5,845 nucleotides of DNA from JALSIF01 sp026981635 [NCBI: bacterium] (lineage in GTDB: Bacteria; 4484-113; JALSIF01). This document shows, one piece after another, positions 1 through 5,398 of the stretch. Every line of letters starts with the position of its first letter. Position 1 is the first letter of the stretch. The position numbers and the translations under genes were made by a program. The notes beneath the pieces are model-generated. The model made no database searches. It was not told the DNA's origin and worked only from the letters and a program-made list of their open reading frames with translations. The stretch lies in NCBI GenBank assembly GCA_026981635.1, contig JALSIF010000029.1, positions 1-5,845 of the forward strand. Reading direction: 5' to 3'.

Positions 1-219
<219 letters not shown>

Positions 220-264: not shown

Positions 265-306
265 CTCCCCCTCCCTGCTTGCGGGGAGGGGGCCGGGGGG
301 TGGGGT
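265..306 (+). repeat. G-rich hairpin repeat, type R1, copy a
   Basis: A 42-bp element whose left part forms a hairpin: CCCCCTCCC (267-275) pairs with GGGAGGGGG (284-292) around the loop TGCTTGCG. The right part adds two more G-runs, giving four runs of at least four G (283-286, 288-292, 295-300, 302-305) with 1-2 base loops. It is identical over 42 bp to the copy at 2146-2187. It begins 45 bp after the ahcY stop. There is no U-tract after the hairpin, so it is not a classical terminator. Confidence 0.9.
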
Positions 307-364
307 GGACCTTAGGATAGGAATAGCTCCAGCCAAACACCGAAATCCCCCCTGCTCAAAGAAA

Positions 365-465
365 CCCCTCCCGGCTGCCTCACGGCAGCCACCCTCACCG
401 CCCGCGGTGAGGAAAAAAAGAAGCTCCCCCTCCCTGCTTGCGGGGAGGGGGTTGGGGGGAGGGGT
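365..465 (+). repeat. Composite three-hairpin repeat unit, diverged copy (R2-like plus R1b)
   Basis: Three hairpins follow one another. The first is GGCTGCC (373-379) with GGCAGCC (384-390) around TCAC. The second is CCTCACCG (393-400) with CGGTGAGG (405-412) around CCCG. After an A-rich spacer ending AAAGAAG comes an R1 hairpin (424-465) with loop TGCTTGCG and four G-runs. The order, the ACC spacer between hairpins 1 and 2, and the AAAGAAG linker match the units at 481-575 and 2051-2143, but hairpins 1 and 2 differ in sequence while keeping their pairing. The unit ends in GGGGTTTACA, as does the copy before the phosphorylase gene. Confidence 0.8.
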
Positions 466-480
466 TTACAGCGGAACAAA

Positions 481-575
481 ACCCCACCCGGCGCTCCGCG
501 CCACCCTCCCCTCACGAGGGGAGGGGAAAGAAGATTCCCATCCCCTTCTGCTGGGAGGGGGCCGGGGGGTGGGGT
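481..575 (+). repeat. Composite three-hairpin repeat unit (R2 plus R1c), left flank of cassette
   Basis: Hairpin 1 is GGCGC (490-494) with GCGCC (498-502). Hairpin 2 is CCCTCCCCT (504-512) with AGGGGAGGG (517-525) around CACG. The linker AAAGAAG leads into a degenerate R1 copy (534-575) whose left arm is eroded but whose right side keeps four G-runs. The first 53 bp match 2051-2103 with four differences by hand alignment, all transitions. The orientation is the same as in the downstream copy, so the two are direct repeats 1570 bp apart. Confidence 0.85.
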
Positions 576-576
576 C

Positions 577-605
577 TGTCTGCGGGGAGGGGCCAGGGGT
601 GGGGT
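577..605 (+). repeat. Partial R1 repeat (right half only)
   Basis: The segment carries the right arm and tail of R1: TGCGGGGAGGGG followed by CCAGGGGTGGGGT. The CCAGGGG variant is shared with the R1 copy at 2104-2143 and is not the CCGGGGGG form of copies a and f. The left arm is missing, so it follows the preceding unit directly. Four G-runs of four or more bases remain. Confidence 0.75.
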
Positions 606-732
606 CTCCCTCCTCTAAAAAAGTCCCCAGAATTTTCCCCTCCAACCCTGCGCTGCGGGGGGTCTCAGGTGTATAGGTATATGAGGGGGCAGTGAGATGC
701 CCTGGAAAGGAACTAGCAGGAGGTCTGTAGAG
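606..732. other. Leader between repeat cluster and exported-protein gene
   Basis: This non-coding stretch drops out of the G-rich repeats into mixed sequence. It must contain the cassette's promoter if the cassette has its own, but I see no convincing -35/-10 pair. The A/T-rich step around 671-682 (GTATAGGTATAT) is the only candidate for a -10 region. The short CCCTGCGCTGCGGGG sequence near 646-660 resembles an eroded R1 core. Confidence 0.4.
718..723 (+). promoter_or_regulatory. Shine-Dalgarno site of the exported-protein gene
   Basis: A perfect AGGAGG lies 9 bases before the ATG at 733. It decides the start: the frame is also open from an ATG at 697, but that one has no such site in front of it and would put a charged, unhelpful extension ahead of the signal peptide. 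Confidence 0.8.
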
Positions 733-1452
733 ATGAGCAAGAAGCCAGCAATACACCCACATTCAATCCTTCAACGCCTATTGACGGCGCTGATGATTTC
801 TGCTTTTATCTACACATTTAGTCTCATTGATACTAGCAATCCCTCATTTGCCCAAGGAAGCCAGCTTGGCTGTTGCAGAATCGGTTGGAGAACAACTGAA
901 CTAACAATCCCAGCAACATGGACAATAGAATACAATGACGGTTCAACTTGCACAATTAATTCAAGCCGGTGGATCGAACCAGTATTTGCCTCTGAAGGTT
1001 GTACCGATAAATCTAGATGTGATGAAATGGGGGGAGAATGGACCCCAGAAGGACAACCTGTTGATATCTTATGTTTTGATGTAAATCAAACAAATTTCAG
1101 CTATGCAGGATCATCAGGAAAGACACTTTCAGACTGTGTTCAAACAGAAGATAAGATTATTGACGGCATTACTTACCGTTGCGTAAGAGCCTTCTGCGCC
1201 TGTGGAAGCGGTAACGGCTCGTCTTTCGCATCTACATCTCTTGGCGGATGTCAATTCAAGGTGGAAACTACCCTCTTGCCAAGCTGGACTATATTTAAAC
1301 TTGGTAGATTTGTCTCAACTGAGAGTAGCTATCACATCACCCCGATGGATCCGTTTATCTTATTTGGGATTGTAGACTTAAAAAAACAAATCATTTATTT
1401 GAATAAAAACACCAAAAGTCCAGATAAATCACCAGAAACAAAGGAGGGATGA
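733..1452 (+). CDS. Exported cysteine-rich protein of unknown function
   Basis: I do not recognise a family. The 239-residue product begins with a signal peptide: lysines at 3 and 4, a hydrophobic core at about 16-32 (LLTALMISAFIYTFSLI), and a likely cut after S-F-A at residue 40. The mature part of about 199 residues contains 11 cysteines, including GCC just after the cut, a C-x5-C pair (EGCTDKSRC) and a CAC near the middle, plus many Asn, Ser and Thr. This suggests a disulfide-linked extracytoplasmic domain. The last 60 or so residues lack cysteine and end in a Lys-rich tail. The gene is strikingly A+T-rich (about 40% G+C by rough count, 25% in the line at 1381-1440), with AGA, ATA and TTA codons unlike the neighbours. 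It has a perfect Shine-Dalgarno site and sits three bases before a lipoprotein gene, so the two are probably cotranslated. Transfer from a lower-G+C source is my inference. Confidence 0.75.
   Translation: MSKKPAIHPHSILQRLLTALMISAFIYTFSLIDTSNPSFAQGSQLGCCRIGWRTTELTIPATWTIEYNDGSTCTINSSRWIEPVFASEGCTDKSRCDEMGGEWTPEGQPVDILCFDVNQTNFSYAGSSGKTLSDCVQTEDKIIDGITYRCVRAFCACGSGNGSSFASTSLGGCQFKVETTLLPSWTIFKLGRFVSTESSYHITPMDPFILFGIVDLKKQIIYLNKNTKSPDKSPETKEG
1441..1448 (+). promoter_or_regulatory. Shine-Dalgarno site of the lipoprotein gene
   Basis: AAGGAGGG lies inside the last codons of the upstream gene, 7 bases before the ATG at 1456. The upstream stop (1450-1452) falls between this site and the start, an arrangement typical of translational coupling. 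It supports reading 733-1938 as one two-gene transcript. Confidence 0.8.
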
Positions 1453-1455
1453 CAC

Positions 1456-1938
1456 ATGTCAGGAACACATCTGAAGTCAGTTTTCGCCATTGCCATCCTG
1501 GCAAGCCTCGCTCTCATTGCGGGCTGCCGGGGAGGCGGCCCGGAACCGTCCAGGGAACTTTCCCGAGCAAGCTTCTCCGACGACAACGCTCTAGTTCTGA
1601 GTAGCGACTTCGGAGAGGCAATCCGGAGACTCAGCCTTCCCCCCGCTAGCCCTTCCCCTGATCAAGCAGGCTCAAGGACCAGCAACATGGCCTGCTACCT
1701 CTCCCCCACCAGCGCTCCCCGTCCGGGCAAGCTCTTCCGTGTGGAGCGCATAGATGGAAAGACCACCTACGTCCGCAGGCCGGCCATGATTGTCAACGAC
1801 CTGGCCGCCGCTTACCCTGGGGCTCCCGCCATGGTTCCCCCGCCAGGCTATGAGAAGGTGGGGCTTTGCGAGCTTATGGGTGGCACCCCAGTCCCCGCCC
1901 CACCTCCAGTGGACACCGGCCTTTTCCTAAAACCTTAG
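1456..1938 (+). CDS. Putative lipoprotein of unknown function
   Basis: The 160-residue product has a clear lipoprotein signal: a short n-region with K7, a hydrophobic stretch at 9-22 (VFAIAILASLALIA) and the lipobox I-A-G-C with the lipid-bearing Cys at 24. The mature chain starts with Gly-, Ser- and Pro-rich, probably flexible sequence (about 25-85). A more compact segment follows (about 88-140), containing FRVERIDGKTTYVRRPAMIV and two further cysteines (in ACYL and GLCEL), then a proline-rich end. I recognise no domain. Its base composition is close to the high-G+C genome average, unlike its partner upstream. Tight spacing and coupling suggest that it anchors, or works with, the exported cysteine-rich protein at the cell surface; this is inference. 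A weak inverted repeat, CCTAA/TTAGG (1926-1939), spans the stop codon. Confidence 0.75.
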   Translation: MSGTHLKSVFAIAILASLALIAGCRGGGPEPSRELSRASFSDDNALVLSSDFGEAIRRLSLPPASPSPDQAGSRTSNMACYLSPTSAPRPGKLFRVERIDGKTTYVRRPAMIVNDLAAAYPGAPAMVPPPGYEKVGLCELMGGTPVPAPPPVDTGLFLKP

Positions 1939-2050
1939 GCCTCTTGCCTCGTCCCCCTGGGCATCGCCAACCAACGCCTGATGGACTAGCCCAACTGAGC
2001 CAACAAGGCCCAGCAGCTAGCCGAAGCCCTCTCCCCGCCTGCGCGGTCCC
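1939..2050. other. Gap between lipoprotein gene and right repeat cluster
   Basis: I see no gene here. The only structure is a loose inverted repeat, CTAGC (1986-1990) with GCTAG (2016-2020), too distant and short to call. No U-tract follows any hairpin, so termination of the cassette transcript is not evident and read-through into the phosphorylase gene is possible. Confidence 0.4.
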
Positions 2051-2143
2051 ACTCCACCCGGCGCTTCGCACCACCCTCCCCTTACGAGGGGAGGGGAAAG
2101 AAGCTCCCCCTCCCCGTTTACAGGGAGGGGCCAGGGGTGGGGT
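2051..2143 (+). repeat. Composite three-hairpin repeat unit (R2 plus R1e), right flank of cassette
   Basis: Hairpin 1 is GGCGC (2060-2064) with GCACC (2068-2072), one mismatch. Hairpin 2 is CCCTCCCCT (2074-2082) with AGGGGAGGG (2087-2095) around TACG. The AAAGAAG linker leads to an R1 copy (2104-2143) that keeps the stem but has a different loop, CGTTTACA. The first 53 bp match 481-533 in the same orientation, with four transitions. Confidence 0.88.
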
Positions 2144-2145
2144 CC

Positions 2146-2187
2146 CTCCCCCTCCCTGCTTGCGGGGAGGGGGCCGGGGGGTGGGGT
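2146..2187 (+). repeat. G-rich hairpin repeat, type R1, copy f
   Basis: By direct reading, this is identical over 42 bp to copy a at 265-306: the same CCCCCTCCC/GGGAGGGGG stem, TGCTTGCG loop and four G-runs (2164-2167, 2169-2173, 2176-2181, 2183-2186). It ends one base before the -10 box of the phosphorylase gene and 14 bases before its start codon, so its G-runs occupy the place of the -35 region. Confidence 0.9.
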
Positions 2188-2200: not shown

Positions 2201-3061
2201 GTGTCCGAGCAGGCCTTTCCCGTCCCCTTAAGCCAGCAGCGCGAGGAGCTCTCTGCAGCCCTGGCCCATATCCGCCAGAGCACCCAGCGGGACTACCCCT
2301 TTGCCCTGATCGGGGGAAGCGGCCTTGACCTTGCCTCCCTGATTGAGGAGGAGGATGCCCGCCTCCCCCTGGTCGGCATCCCCCACCTTGCCCCCGCCAC
2401 CGTGGCCGGTCACCGGGGCGAGCTCATCCTCGGCACCTGCCAGGGAAAACCCCTCGCCCTCCAGCTCGGCCGCCTCCACTACTACGAGGGCCACTCCCTC
2501 TACCGGGTCACCTTCCCCGTCCGCCTGCTCAGTGCCCTTGGCGCCCGGGTGCTGGTGGTGACCACCGCCTCGGGTGGCATCCACCGCGACATGGCCCCCG
2601 GCGACGTGATGCTCCACAGCGACTTCATCAACCTGCTGGGCGACGACCCCCTGCGCGGAGTGGAGGTGGAGCCCGGACGGCCCCGCTTCCTGGACCTCTC
2701 CGCCCCCTACGACCTGGAGCTGACCGACCTCCTGGAGGAGGCCCTCTTGGGCGCCGGCCTGGTGGTCCACCGGGGGACCTTTGCCGCCCGCCCCGGCCCC
2801 TGCTACGAGACCCGGGCCGAGATTGAGATGCTGAGAAGCCTGGGGGTGGGGGCCGTCTCCATGTCCACCGTGCCCGAGGTGGTGGTGGGAAACCATCTGG
2901 GCATGCGGGTGGTGGGTCTATCCATTATCACCAACCGGGCAGGGGTGGGCAAGCTCTCCCATGAGGAGGTGCTAAGGGTCAGCCAGCAGGCATCAGAGCG
3001 CCTCTGCCAGGCCCTGCAAAGTTTCCTCGCCCGCGCCGAGGCGGGAGGAGAGGGAGGATAA
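2201..3061 (+). CDS. punA: Purine nucleoside phosphorylase (trimeric PNP/MTAP family)
   Basis: The enzyme splits purine nucleosides with phosphate into free base and (deoxy)ribose-1-phosphate in the cytoplasm. The 286 residues match the usual length of trimeric PNPs. Visible motifs in order: GGSGL at 38-42 (phosphate loop), H71 in HRG, GRLHYYEGH at 90-98 (R91 and H93 as phosphate ligands), TTASGG at 121-126, DFINLLGDDPLRG at 141-153, YETRAE at 202-207 with base-binding E203, MSTVPEV at 221-227, ITN with N245, and SHEEV with H254. The Glu/Asn pair favours 6-oxopurines (inosine, guanosine). T122, where PNPs usually have Asn, recalls methylthioadenosine phosphorylases, so exact substrate use is open. 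GTG at 2201 is the only reasonable start and gives a normal N-terminus. Nearby ahcY and metK suggest that it salvages purines derived from the adenosine released by ahcY. Confidence 0.9.
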   Translation: MSEQAFPVPLSQQREELSAALAHIRQSTQRDYPFALIGGSGLDLASLIEEEDARLPLVGIPHLAPATVAGHRGELILGTCQGKPLALQLGRLHYYEGHSLYRVTFPVRLLSALGARVLVVTTASGGIHRDMAPGDVMLHSDFINLLGDDPLRGVEVEPGRPRFLDLSAPYDLELTDLLEEALLGAGLVVHRGTFAARPGPCYETRAEIEMLRSLGVGAVSMSTVPEVVVGNHLGMRVVGLSIITNRAGVGKLSHEEVLRVSQQASERLCQALQSFLARAEAGGEGG

Positions 3062-3210: not shown

Positions 3211-3516
3211 TTATACCTCAAACTCGGGGGCCTCGGTATGCTCCTCCTCCTGCCCCATGAGCTGGTCTGCGCTCACATCGGTGGTCCCCGAGAAGACCCG
3301 CCCGAAGCGGGTGAGGATCTCGGCCTGGCCGCGGATCTTCATCACGCTCACGTTCTCCGTAAACTGGGCGATGAAGACCTCGCCCGGGTCCAGCTTCTCC
3401 GAATGGAGGAAGCGGGTCTCCTCTCCGCGGGTGAGCCCGGAGACGCTCACTCCCGGACCCAGCGCCTTGACCACGATGTACTCGGCCTGCACCGCTTTAT
3501 CCAACTCGTCTTTCAT
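3211..3516 (-). CDS. Hypothetical protein, 101 residues
   Basis: I recognise no family. The product has no signal peptide, membrane segment or cysteine, so it is probably cytoplasmic. The N-terminus (MKDELDKAVQAEYIVVKA) reads as a helix followed by a strand. The middle alternates hydrophobic and polar residues (VFIAQFTENVSVMKIRGQAEIL, about 47-68), as in a small beta-rich domain. The C-terminus is acidic (GQEEEHTEAPEFEV). Codon use and G+C content match the housekeeping neighbours, and the frame is uninterrupted, which supports a real gene. It lies 47 bp downstream of the Fur-family gene on the same strand and 59 bp upstream of the tRNA, so all three may share a transcript, although a separate -10 box is visible just before its ATG. 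No Shine-Dalgarno site is present. Confidence 0.7.
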   Translation of the reverse strand: MKDELDKAVQAEYIVVKALGPGVSVSGLTRGEETRFLHSEKLDPGEVFIAQFTENVSVMKIRGQAEILTRFGRVFSGTTDVSADQLMGQEEEHTEAPEFEV

Positions 3517-4108: not shown

Positions 4109-5398
4109 GTGGAGATTTTCCGACCCAGGGTGGAGAGCGAGACCGGACGCCTTGAGATGGTGGTGGTGGAACCCCCAGGGCTCAACCACCTGGCCATGGA
4201 ACCCTCCGACCTGGAGCACTACTTCATCCGCGATGGAGAGCTTAAGGAGAACCCCGGCTACCTCCTGTTTGAGGACCTGCTCTTTGTGCGCCTGGCCCGC
4301 CGGGAGCACGACCAATTCACCTCAGTGCTCTCTGCCACCGGCCAGGTGCTCACCTTCTCCCAGCTCATGGCCGAAGCCCTAGAGCAGGAGGCGGCGGTGG
4401 AAGGTCTCATGGCTGGCCTGAGGGAGCTGGGAGATATTGACGGGGAGCTTGAAGAGGAGCTTCGTCACCTCAACCCATCAGACCTTGTCCTGGTGTTGAC
4501 CAGCGGCCGGAGGCGGGGCAGGCGCTTTGCCGAGCGCCTATTTGCCCCCCTGCCCAACCTGCTCTACACCAGAGACCTTGCCGCGGTGATGGGCAAGGTG
4601 GTGGTCCTCTCCTATGCCGCCAAGCCGGCCCGCTACCGGGAAATGCTCATGGCCCGCATCCTCTTCGCCCACCATCCCTCCCTCAGGGAGTGCAGACTGG
4701 TGGATCTGGGCCGGGCCGCACCTGGCCTCACCGTGGAGGGAGGAGACCTCATGGTGGTCTCTTCCCAGGTGGCCCTGATCGGCACCTCCGAGCGCACCTC
4801 CCGCCGGGCGGCAGAGCTCATTGCCGCAGAGCTGCTGGGCGAGGGCGGCTTTGAGGTGGTGCTTGCGGTGGAGGTGCCCCCCGAGCGGAGGGCGATGCAC
4901 CTGGACACGGTGTTTACCGTTATCGGCCCCGAGTGTGCGGTGGTCTATCCCCCCTACATTGAACAGCCCCCCGACGCCGATCCCCCCGGGGTGAGGGTCT
5001 ACCGGCTGGAGCGACCGGGGGACCGGATGGAGAAGCCCACCGGCCGCACCCTGCTTCGTGAGCTTGCTGAACTGGGCTACCACTTTGAGCCCATCGCCTG
5101 CGGGGGGAGGCGCTTCCGCCTGCTGCAGGACCGGGAGCAGTGGTCGGACGGGTGCAACCTGTTTGCCCTTGCCCCCAATGTGGTGGTCTGCTACGAGCGA
5201 AACGACGAGACCATTCGCGAACTCCAGCGCAACGACTTTCGGGTGGTCACCCCGGAGGAGTTCGTCAGGAACAGCGAGTTCTACCTCTCCCGTGCGCCGG
5301 AGCGCCGCACGGTGGTCGCCCTTGAGGGGGCCGAGCTTTGCCGGGGAAGGGGCGGCCCCCGCTGTATGACCCTGCCCCTGCGCCGGGCAACCGCCTAG
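4109..5398 (+). CDS. arcA: Arginine deiminase
   Basis: The enzyme hydrolyses arginine to citrulline and ammonia, the first step of the arginine deiminase pathway. All catalytic blocks are visible in the 429 residues: FEDLLFVRLARREHDQF (54-70), YTRD with D156, VEGGD with E210 and D213, MHLDTVF with H264 and D266, REQWSDGCN (342-350), and the closing GRGGPRCM with the nucleophile C419. These correspond to D166, E224, H278, D280 and C406 of the Pseudomonas enzyme. Length is normal to slightly long. A stretch of about 25 residues (382-407) between VVTPEEF and EGAELCRGRGG is longer than in the Pseudomonas form and may modify the lid near the active site. The GTG start has no Shine-Dalgarno site but a -10 box 6 bases upstream. 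The gene stands alone: the rest of the pathway (arcB, arcC, transporter) is not next to it in this window. A divergent Fur-family gene may regulate it. Confidence 0.95.
   Translation: MEIFRPRVESETGRLEMVVVEPPGLNHLAMEPSDLEHYFIRDGELKENPGYLLFEDLLFVRLARREHDQFTSVLSATGQVLTFSQLMAEALEQEAAVEGLMAGLRELGDIDGELEEELRHLNPSDLVLVLTSGRRRGRRFAERLFAPLPNLLYTRDLAAVMGKVVVLSYAAKPARYREMLMARILFAHHPSLRECRLVDLGRAAPGLTVEGGDLMVVSSQVALIGTSERTSRRAAELIAAELLGEGGFEVVLAVEVPPERRAMHLDTVFTVIGPECAVVYPPYIEQPPDADPPGVRVYRLERPGDRMEKPTGRTLLRELAELGYHFEPIACGGRRFRLLQDREQWSDGCNLFALAPNVVVCYERNDETIRELQRNDFRVVTPEEFVRNSEFYLSRAPERRTVVALEGAELCRGRGGPRCMTLPLRRATA

What the first reader, a model, noticed from the sequence alone, without database searches (positions are those of the whole stretch)
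481..2187. Surface-protein cassette bracketed by direct copies of a composite repeat
The two unrecognised genes (733-1938) lie between two clusters of the same repeat in the same orientation. Units 481-533 and 2051-2103 differ at four of 53 positions by hand alignment, and R1 copies a (265-306) and f (2146-2187) are identical over 42 bp. Recombination between the copies would remove the cassette and leave ahcY separated from the phosphorylase gene by a single repeat, restoring two metabolically linked neighbours. The first gene's low G+C content adds to the case for insertion. This could be a repeat-guided accessory module that can be gained and lost.
Basis: partly seen in the sequence, partly recalled or inferred. 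Interest (0 to 1): 0.6.

Follow-up and report, generated by a model that had tools for sequence, protein, structure and literature searches.

The report
Repeat-bracketed secreted-protein gene pair
Two unfamiliar, foreign-looking genes for apparently exported proteins sit between matching clusters of a hairpin-forming DNA repeat in an uncultured bacterium, and the same genome holds sister gene pairs, most of them bracketed by the same repeats, though nobody has yet seen such a pair come or go.

Summary
In detail: same-orientation copies of a composite repeat bracket genes 733-1938 (4 of 53 mismatches; one 42-bp pair identical). Gene 1 has alien composition (third-position G+C 0.354 against 0.861 in the phosphorylase gene). 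The repeat is a RIME/REP-like palindromic element, in 11 clusters on 6 contigs of the searchable 1.75-Mb draft genome, not found in 9 class relatives. New here: the pair belongs to a family. A leader block (79% identical) is shared with C297, and TATATGAGGGG, present three times in the searchable genome, precedes three gene pairs (C29, C297, C89): a Cys-rich exported protein, then a second exported protein or lipoprotein. A fourth pair is linked to C89 by protein similarity. Three of four pairs lie between repeat clusters; C89 has none, and two clusters bracket nothing. Low-G+C patches lie near 7 of 10 clusters against 8.3% of random places. Gain and loss through the repeats was not shown: no close relative is held, and the clusters flanking C29, and those flanking C297a, are not each other's closest matches. 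The cassette family is fairly well supported; the excision mechanism remains a guess.

The parts
265..306 (+). hairpin unit R1 with G-rich tail; identical to 2146-2187
364..466 (+). composite palindromic repeat unit (three hairpins), with compensatory changes in hairpin 2
481..575 (+). composite palindromic repeat unit; its two ends pair in the predicted fold
576..606 (+). partial R1 unit
   Evidence: (family D4, 578-613)
617..724 (+). leader shared with the C297 cassette (79% identity); no other match under E 0.1 in the searchable genome
678..688 (+). TATATGAGGGG, one of three copies in the searchable genome, 44 bp before the start codon
733..1452 (+). gene 1: 239 aa, 11 Cys, apparent signal peptide, then CC; low-G+C orphan
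   Evidence: signal peptide judged by eye
1456..1938 (+). gene 2: 160 aa putative lipoprotein (IAGC lipobox by eye); orphan
2027..2187 (+). downstream repeat cluster (partial 2027-2050; composite 2051-2144; R1 2146-2187)
1..219 (+). ahcY C-terminus (left neighbour)
2201..3061 (+). purine-nucleoside phosphorylase gene (right neighbour)

Best explanation
The window carries one of at least four two-gene cassettes of this genome, each with a Cys-rich, apparently exported first protein and an apparently exported or lipoprotein second protein. Three have TATATGAGGGG 41-44 bp before the first start codon. Three of the four lie between same-orientation clusters of a RIME/REP-like palindromic repeat, next to conserved genes. 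Shown: the repeats, the shared leader of C29 and C297a, the shared motif with C89, the protein link C89-C297b, the low G+C. Inferred: the [repeat cluster + leader] block was copied between sites while coding parts diverged or were exchanged; the clusters act as passive portable homology through which the host's own recombination can duplicate, swap or delete cassettes, without a dedicated recombinase. Most likely role of the proteins (inferred, weak): a secreted disulfide-stabilised protein working with a membrane-anchored partner at the cell surface.
For: The C29 leader matches only C297:957-1064 at E 1.7e-18, next best E 0.11. The C29-C297 homology runs from the repeats into the leader, to window position 724, and not into the coding part. 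TATATGAGGGG has 3 copies in the searchable genome, 0 for the reversed control, each before such a gene pair; 0.39 expected, Poisson P 0.007, with the motif chosen after the leaders were seen. Second genes of C297b and C89 are homologous, 36% identity, E 6.9e-26 in an 8-sequence BLAST; 1 of 385 genomes, its own, has this family. First genes of C297b and C89 score 51 against at most 50 in 200 shuffles, one of 28 pairs compared. 7 of 10 clusters lie within 500 bp of a patch under 50% G+C against 8.3% of random places. Clusters around C297b and around the C316 gene are mutual best matches, 89.5% over 143 bp and 90% over 211 bp. Hairpin covariation 0.142 against 0.064 shuffled, 0 of 500.
Against: C89 has motif and gene pair but no repeats, and its leader shares only the 11-mer and the spacing: the leader search did not list it even at E 10, and a longer 18-base pattern missed it and gave two other places, C44 and C61, that I did not look at. 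C133 and C138 have clusters without a low-G+C cassette. The clusters flanking C29, and those flanking C297a, are not each other's best matches. The random-place control was not confined to intergenic places, and clusters are not independent: 5 contigs, 3 showing the link; at a 45% threshold 4 of 10 clusters count (4.2% at random). No empty site and no reads were seen. The first gene of C297a has a broken frame. Function unknown: structure models are poor (mean pLDDT 44.6 and 38.4).
Confidence: 0.47

Rival explanations
1. The repeats are ordinary RIME/REP/MITE-like elements that settle in permissive gaps. Recently acquired or fast-evolving orphan genes also lie in such gaps, so the two coincide without the repeats having any part in moving the genes.
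For: C89 pair without repeats; C133 and C138 clusters without low-G+C cassettes; flanking clusters of C29 and of C297a not each other's best matches; the element is a general palindromic type, with a like-built sequence outside listed genes on a Rhizobium plasmid.
Against: The 5 low-G+C patches in 26.7 kb of repeat contigs all lie between two clusters, against 11 patches in 233 kb of 35 sampled contigs. The C29-C297a homology joins repeat and leader in one block. Clusters on C29, C297 and C316 each share one orientation.
Confidence: 0.37
2. Composite transposon: two flanking MITE-like elements moved together with the genes between them by a transposase acting in trans.
For: Complementary ends of a unit of about 95 bp; MITE-bracketed cargo is known (PMC3934969, listing and start of abstract; PMC10969869, passages).
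Against: No Y1 (IS200/RAYT) transposase found in the searchable genome; clusters hold several units with tandem partial copies; target duplications were not tested; other transposase families were not searched.
Confidence: 0.08
3. Integron-like array: the palindromic repeats are recombination sites of a tyrosine recombinase that captures gene cassettes.
For: Hairpin sites between short orphan gene sets, four clusters on one contig (C297).
Against: An aminotransferase and an acyltransferase gene (hisC-like, plsC-like) lie between clusters on C297; cassette b runs against the repeat direction while cassette a runs with it; the leader motif lies inside the C29 and C297a cassettes. An integrase was not searched for.
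Confidence: 0.04
4. The clusters are transcript-level elements (terminators or RNA stabilisers) that insulate foreign genes from neighbouring operons.
For: Paired stems kept by compensatory changes on both sides of the gene pairs.
Against: No run of T after the stems by eye (the terminator scan was not run); cluster direction is opposite to gene direction on C133; clusters hold several hairpins where one would suffice.
Confidence: 0.13

Closest known systems
RIME / REP / MITE-type palindromic intergenic repeats
   Same: Short, intergenic, multi-copy, stem-forming, mosaic. A Rhizobium plasmid stretch outside listed genes has the same order of parts: ACCCCTCCC, a GGC..GCC hairpin, a CCACCCTCCCC..GGGGAGGG hairpin.
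   Different: Few clusters in this genome, placed mostly beside low-G+C genes; a third hairpin and tandem R1 units. Not compared with a published RIME consensus.
Microcin H47 genomic island of E. coli (PMC5426353; start of abstract and passages seen)
   Same: Accessory genes between imperfect direct repeats (148 and 144 bp) sharing short homologies; excised without a recombinase of its own and without RecA.
   Different: Excision was detected there by PCR (an in vivo search for deleted clones failed) and empty sites exist in natural strains; here only the anatomy. Here the repeats are a dispersed palindromic family and several cassettes exist.
MITE-bracketed cargo, e.g. the blaPER-1 region of Acinetobacter johnsonii (PMC3934969, listing and start of abstract; review PMC10969869, passages)
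   Same: Genes between same-family repeats.
   Different: No transposase link or target duplication established here.

Membership tests
RIME/REP-like palindromic intergenic repeat | multiple dispersed copies in one genome | tested here: met
   11 clusters on 6 contigs
RIME/REP-like palindromic intergenic repeat | stem-forming, structure kept by compensatory change | tested here: met
   11 units: 95.9% of cells paired; covariation 0.142, 0 of 500 shuffles as high; 3 pairs with changes on both sides (17 of 500 as high); further pair types 8, not unusual (182 of 500). The structure was drawn from these units
RIME/REP-like palindromic intergenic repeat | matches a published RIME consensus | not tested
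   only an 84% match over 45 bp to a Rhizobium plasmid and one over 50 bp inside an annotated Azospirillum gene; the RIME sequence is recalled, not fetched
REP with RAYT | Y1 transposase (PF01797) in the genome | tested here: not met
   0 matches in G000; controls rang in 5 of 14 genomes; genome 85% complete, short contigs masked
MITE-composite transposon | terminal inverted repeats | tested here: met
   ends ACCCCACCC and GGGTGGGGT paired in the fold of 481-575
MITE-composite transposon | target-site duplication and parental transposase | not tested
   no empty site to compare; only PF01797 searched
Integron gene cassettes | integrase gene | not tested
Integron gene cassettes | fixed orientation of cassettes to sites, promoterless cassettes | tested here: not met
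   C297a and C297b point opposite ways between same-orientation clusters; leader motif inside the C29 and C297a cassettes, though promoter activity is not shown
Recombinase-free excisable island (H47 type) | imperfect direct repeats at both ends | tested here: met
Recombinase-free excisable island (H47 type) | excision product or empty site observed | tested here: inconclusive
   no close relative held; class relatives lack the repeat and show no ahcY beside the phosphorylase gene

The most novel reading that the evidence does not exclude
A recombinase-free cassette system: palindromic repeat plus a fixed leader form a constant docking and expression frame, into which fast-changing pairs of Cys-rich exported protein and anchored partner are exchanged between chromosomal sites of one lineage.
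Probability: 0.15. Interest if true: 0.7.

Novelty: new variant of a known kind. Interest (0 to 1): 0.42.

Why it matters
If the repeats do carry these cassettes, a lineage varies its secreted or surface proteins by plain homology between hairpin repeats, with a shared leader in front. It would link dispersed palindromic repeats, usually treated as clutter, to turnover of orphan envelope genes. Even without mobility, a so far genome-private family of Cys-rich exported gene pairs with its own leader motif is a defined target for study.

Tried and rejected
Direct test in relatives: no material. The nearest genomes offered share only the class, none of 9 has the repeat under the pattern used, and the one genome-contig scan gave six distant phosphorylase loci, 24-43% identical. 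Phage or plasmid origin of the genes: gene 1 no match in viral contigs and plasmids, gene 2 none in viral contigs and phages; family A1 none in viral contigs. Gene 1 against phages and gene 2 against plasmids were not run. Repeat core, exact, in viral contigs: 0. RAYT: none. Defence-system proteins: none. PDB sequence relatives: A1 gave ten weak matches (best E 0.011), all to one calcium-uptake protein, judged chance; gene 1 none. AlphaFold models of genes 1 and 2 are too poor for a fold search, so none was run. A weak gene 1 to gene 2 similarity (1 of 200 shuffles as high) is judged chance. Background low-G+C patches: 11 on 10 contigs looked at by eye; C89 alone showed a like gene pair; the others are parts of longer ORFs or gaps, one (L113) beside an uncharacterised lipoprotein-like ORF not followed up. 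In print: three searches (0, 12 and 1 papers listed) showed nothing alike in their listings; the library is partial.

Limits: 25 of 60 sampled contigs, all under 3 kb, read N, so repeat and motif counts are lower bounds. In one search the fragment taken for the C297a first gene was a wrong 16-residue piece, so its comparisons there mean nothing.

Full report
What is there. The window is a complete 5,845-base contig (C29) of a 1.745-Mb draft genome in 317 contigs, 85% complete. It holds the end of ahcY, two orphan genes, a purine-nucleoside phosphorylase gene, tRNA-Met, an mtrB-like gene, a Fur-family gene and an arginine-deiminase-like gene.

The repeat. Eleven units from 9 of the 11 clusters were aligned; left out were a shortened unit on C297 (about 842-903), the cut cluster at the start of C158, and the lone R1 units. 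They share one plan: ACCCC(A/T)CCC with small variants, a variable hairpin, a CCTCCCC..GGGGAGG hairpin, an A-rich spacer, a third hairpin and a G-rich end that can pair with the start. 95.9% of pair cells are standard and the covariation score (0.142) is reached by 0 of 500 shuffles; three pairs change on both sides (17 of 500 shuffles as high); the number of pair types is not unusual (182 of 500). Extra third-hairpin units are added in tandem. Of 72,556 plasmids two match, at 84% over about half the query: Azospirillum (inside an annotated gene) and Rhizobium (outside any listed gene, same order of parts). I recall RIME elements as built alike but did not fetch their consensus; one paper names RIMEs as intergenic repeats of unknown function (PMC2573895, passages).

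Where it occurs. In the searchable genome I group the matches into 11 clusters: two on C29, four on C297, two on C316, one each on C133 and C138, and one at the very start of C158. Matches at E above 0.05 on other contigs were not counted. Nine genomes of the same class have none under the pattern used. Clusters on C29, C297 and C316 share orientation within each contig.

The genes are a family. A 108-bp leader at 617-724 matches C297:957-1064 at 79% and nothing else better than E 0.1. TATATGAGGGG occurs three times: C29, C297 and C89 (0.39 expected, P 0.007). The motif was picked after seeing these leaders, so that P is indicative only; beyond the 11-mer and its spacing the C89 leader is not detectably alike. 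In all three a start codon follows 41-44 bp later behind a G-rich stretch (on C89 the start is chosen by this analogy). Each is followed by a gene for a Cys-rich, apparently exported protein (11 Cys on C29 and C89; the C297 one has a broken frame) and then a second gene with an apparent signal or lipobox (judged by eye). A fourth pair, C297 5272-6594 on the minus strand (C297b), lacks the 11-mer; its first protein has 12 Cys and its second gene is 36% identical to that of C89. CC lies soon after the apparent signal peptide in C29, C89 and C297b. The C89/C297b second-gene family was found in 1 of 385 genomes, its own; C29 genes 1 and 2 in 1 of 60 each, likewise.

Link of repeats and cassettes. 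Of four pairs, three (C29, C297a, C297b) lie between clusters; C89 has none. C316 clusters bracket one small, apparently membrane-bound gene with no Pfam match over cut-off. The five patches under 50% G+C on the five repeat contigs read all lie between two clusters, one of them in the C297 interval that also holds aminotransferase (hisC-like) and acyltransferase (plsC-like) genes. In 35 unmasked random contigs (233 kb) there were 11 such patches; 7 of 10 clusters lie within 500 bp of a patch against 8.3% of random places (P 2.6e-6 if independent, which they are not; 3 of 5 contigs show the link, and the random places were not confined to gaps). With a 45% threshold it is 4 of 10 against 4.2%. 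C133 and C138 show no such patch, though the C138 cluster borders an ORF without Pfam match at ordinary G+C. C158 could not be judged.

Mechanism. Around C297b and the C316 gene the flanking clusters are each other's best matches (89.5% over 143 bp, 90% over 211 bp), as expected if a block was duplicated with or around the gene, or kept alike by recombination. Around C29 they are not (downstream cluster closest to C297 clusters 3 and 4, upstream to C297 clusters 3 and 2), nor around C297a, whose two clusters are both closest to the C29 upstream cluster (best single alignments, clusters of unequal length). So no recent exchange between the C29 flanks is visible. The C29-C297a homology joins cluster and leader and does not enter the coding part, which suggests that repeat and leader travelled together, with different genes behind. 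Deletion between imperfect direct repeats of this size is known in E. coli: the 13-kb H47 island with 148- and 144-bp repeats is excised without its own recombinase and without RecA, as seen by PCR (PMC5426353, passages). Repeats as recombination points are also discussed for MITEs (PMC10969869, passages). For this genome the step is inferred only.

Verdict. Observation confirmed; the 'cassette' part is strengthened by sister pairs and a private leader motif; 'gained and lost through the repeats' stays open, with evidence both ways.

Noticed in passing
L164 (contig C89) 349-1859, minus strand: A further Cys-rich exported protein plus lipoprotein-like gene pair with the TATATGAGGGG motif but no flanking repeats.
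   Followed up: yes
L045 (C297) 957-2305 and 5272-6594: Two sister gene pairs on one 7-kb contig; the first gene of the former has a broken reading frame.
   Followed up: partly
L045 (C297) 4392-4763, minus strand: Small membrane-type ORF at 32% G+C beside a repeat cluster and next to a plsC-like gene.
   Followed up: no
window 3211-3516, minus strand: MtrB (TRAP)-like protein of 101 aa with about 24 residues beyond the matched part of the family model; just below the NCBIfam cut-off (106.5 against 117), above Pfam's.
   Followed up: no
window 4109-5398: Arginine-deiminase-family protein scoring well below the NCBIfam arginine deiminase cut-offs (242 against 414 bits), perhaps a different activity.
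   Followed up: no
L048 (C158) 1-49: Contig begins inside a repeat unit, as expected if these repeats break assembly; further clusters may be hidden at contig ends.
   Followed up: no
L113 5587-6700: Lipoprotein-like ORF beside a low-G+C gap next to a dnaG-like gene (label by eye); possibly another accessory site without repeats.
   Followed up: no
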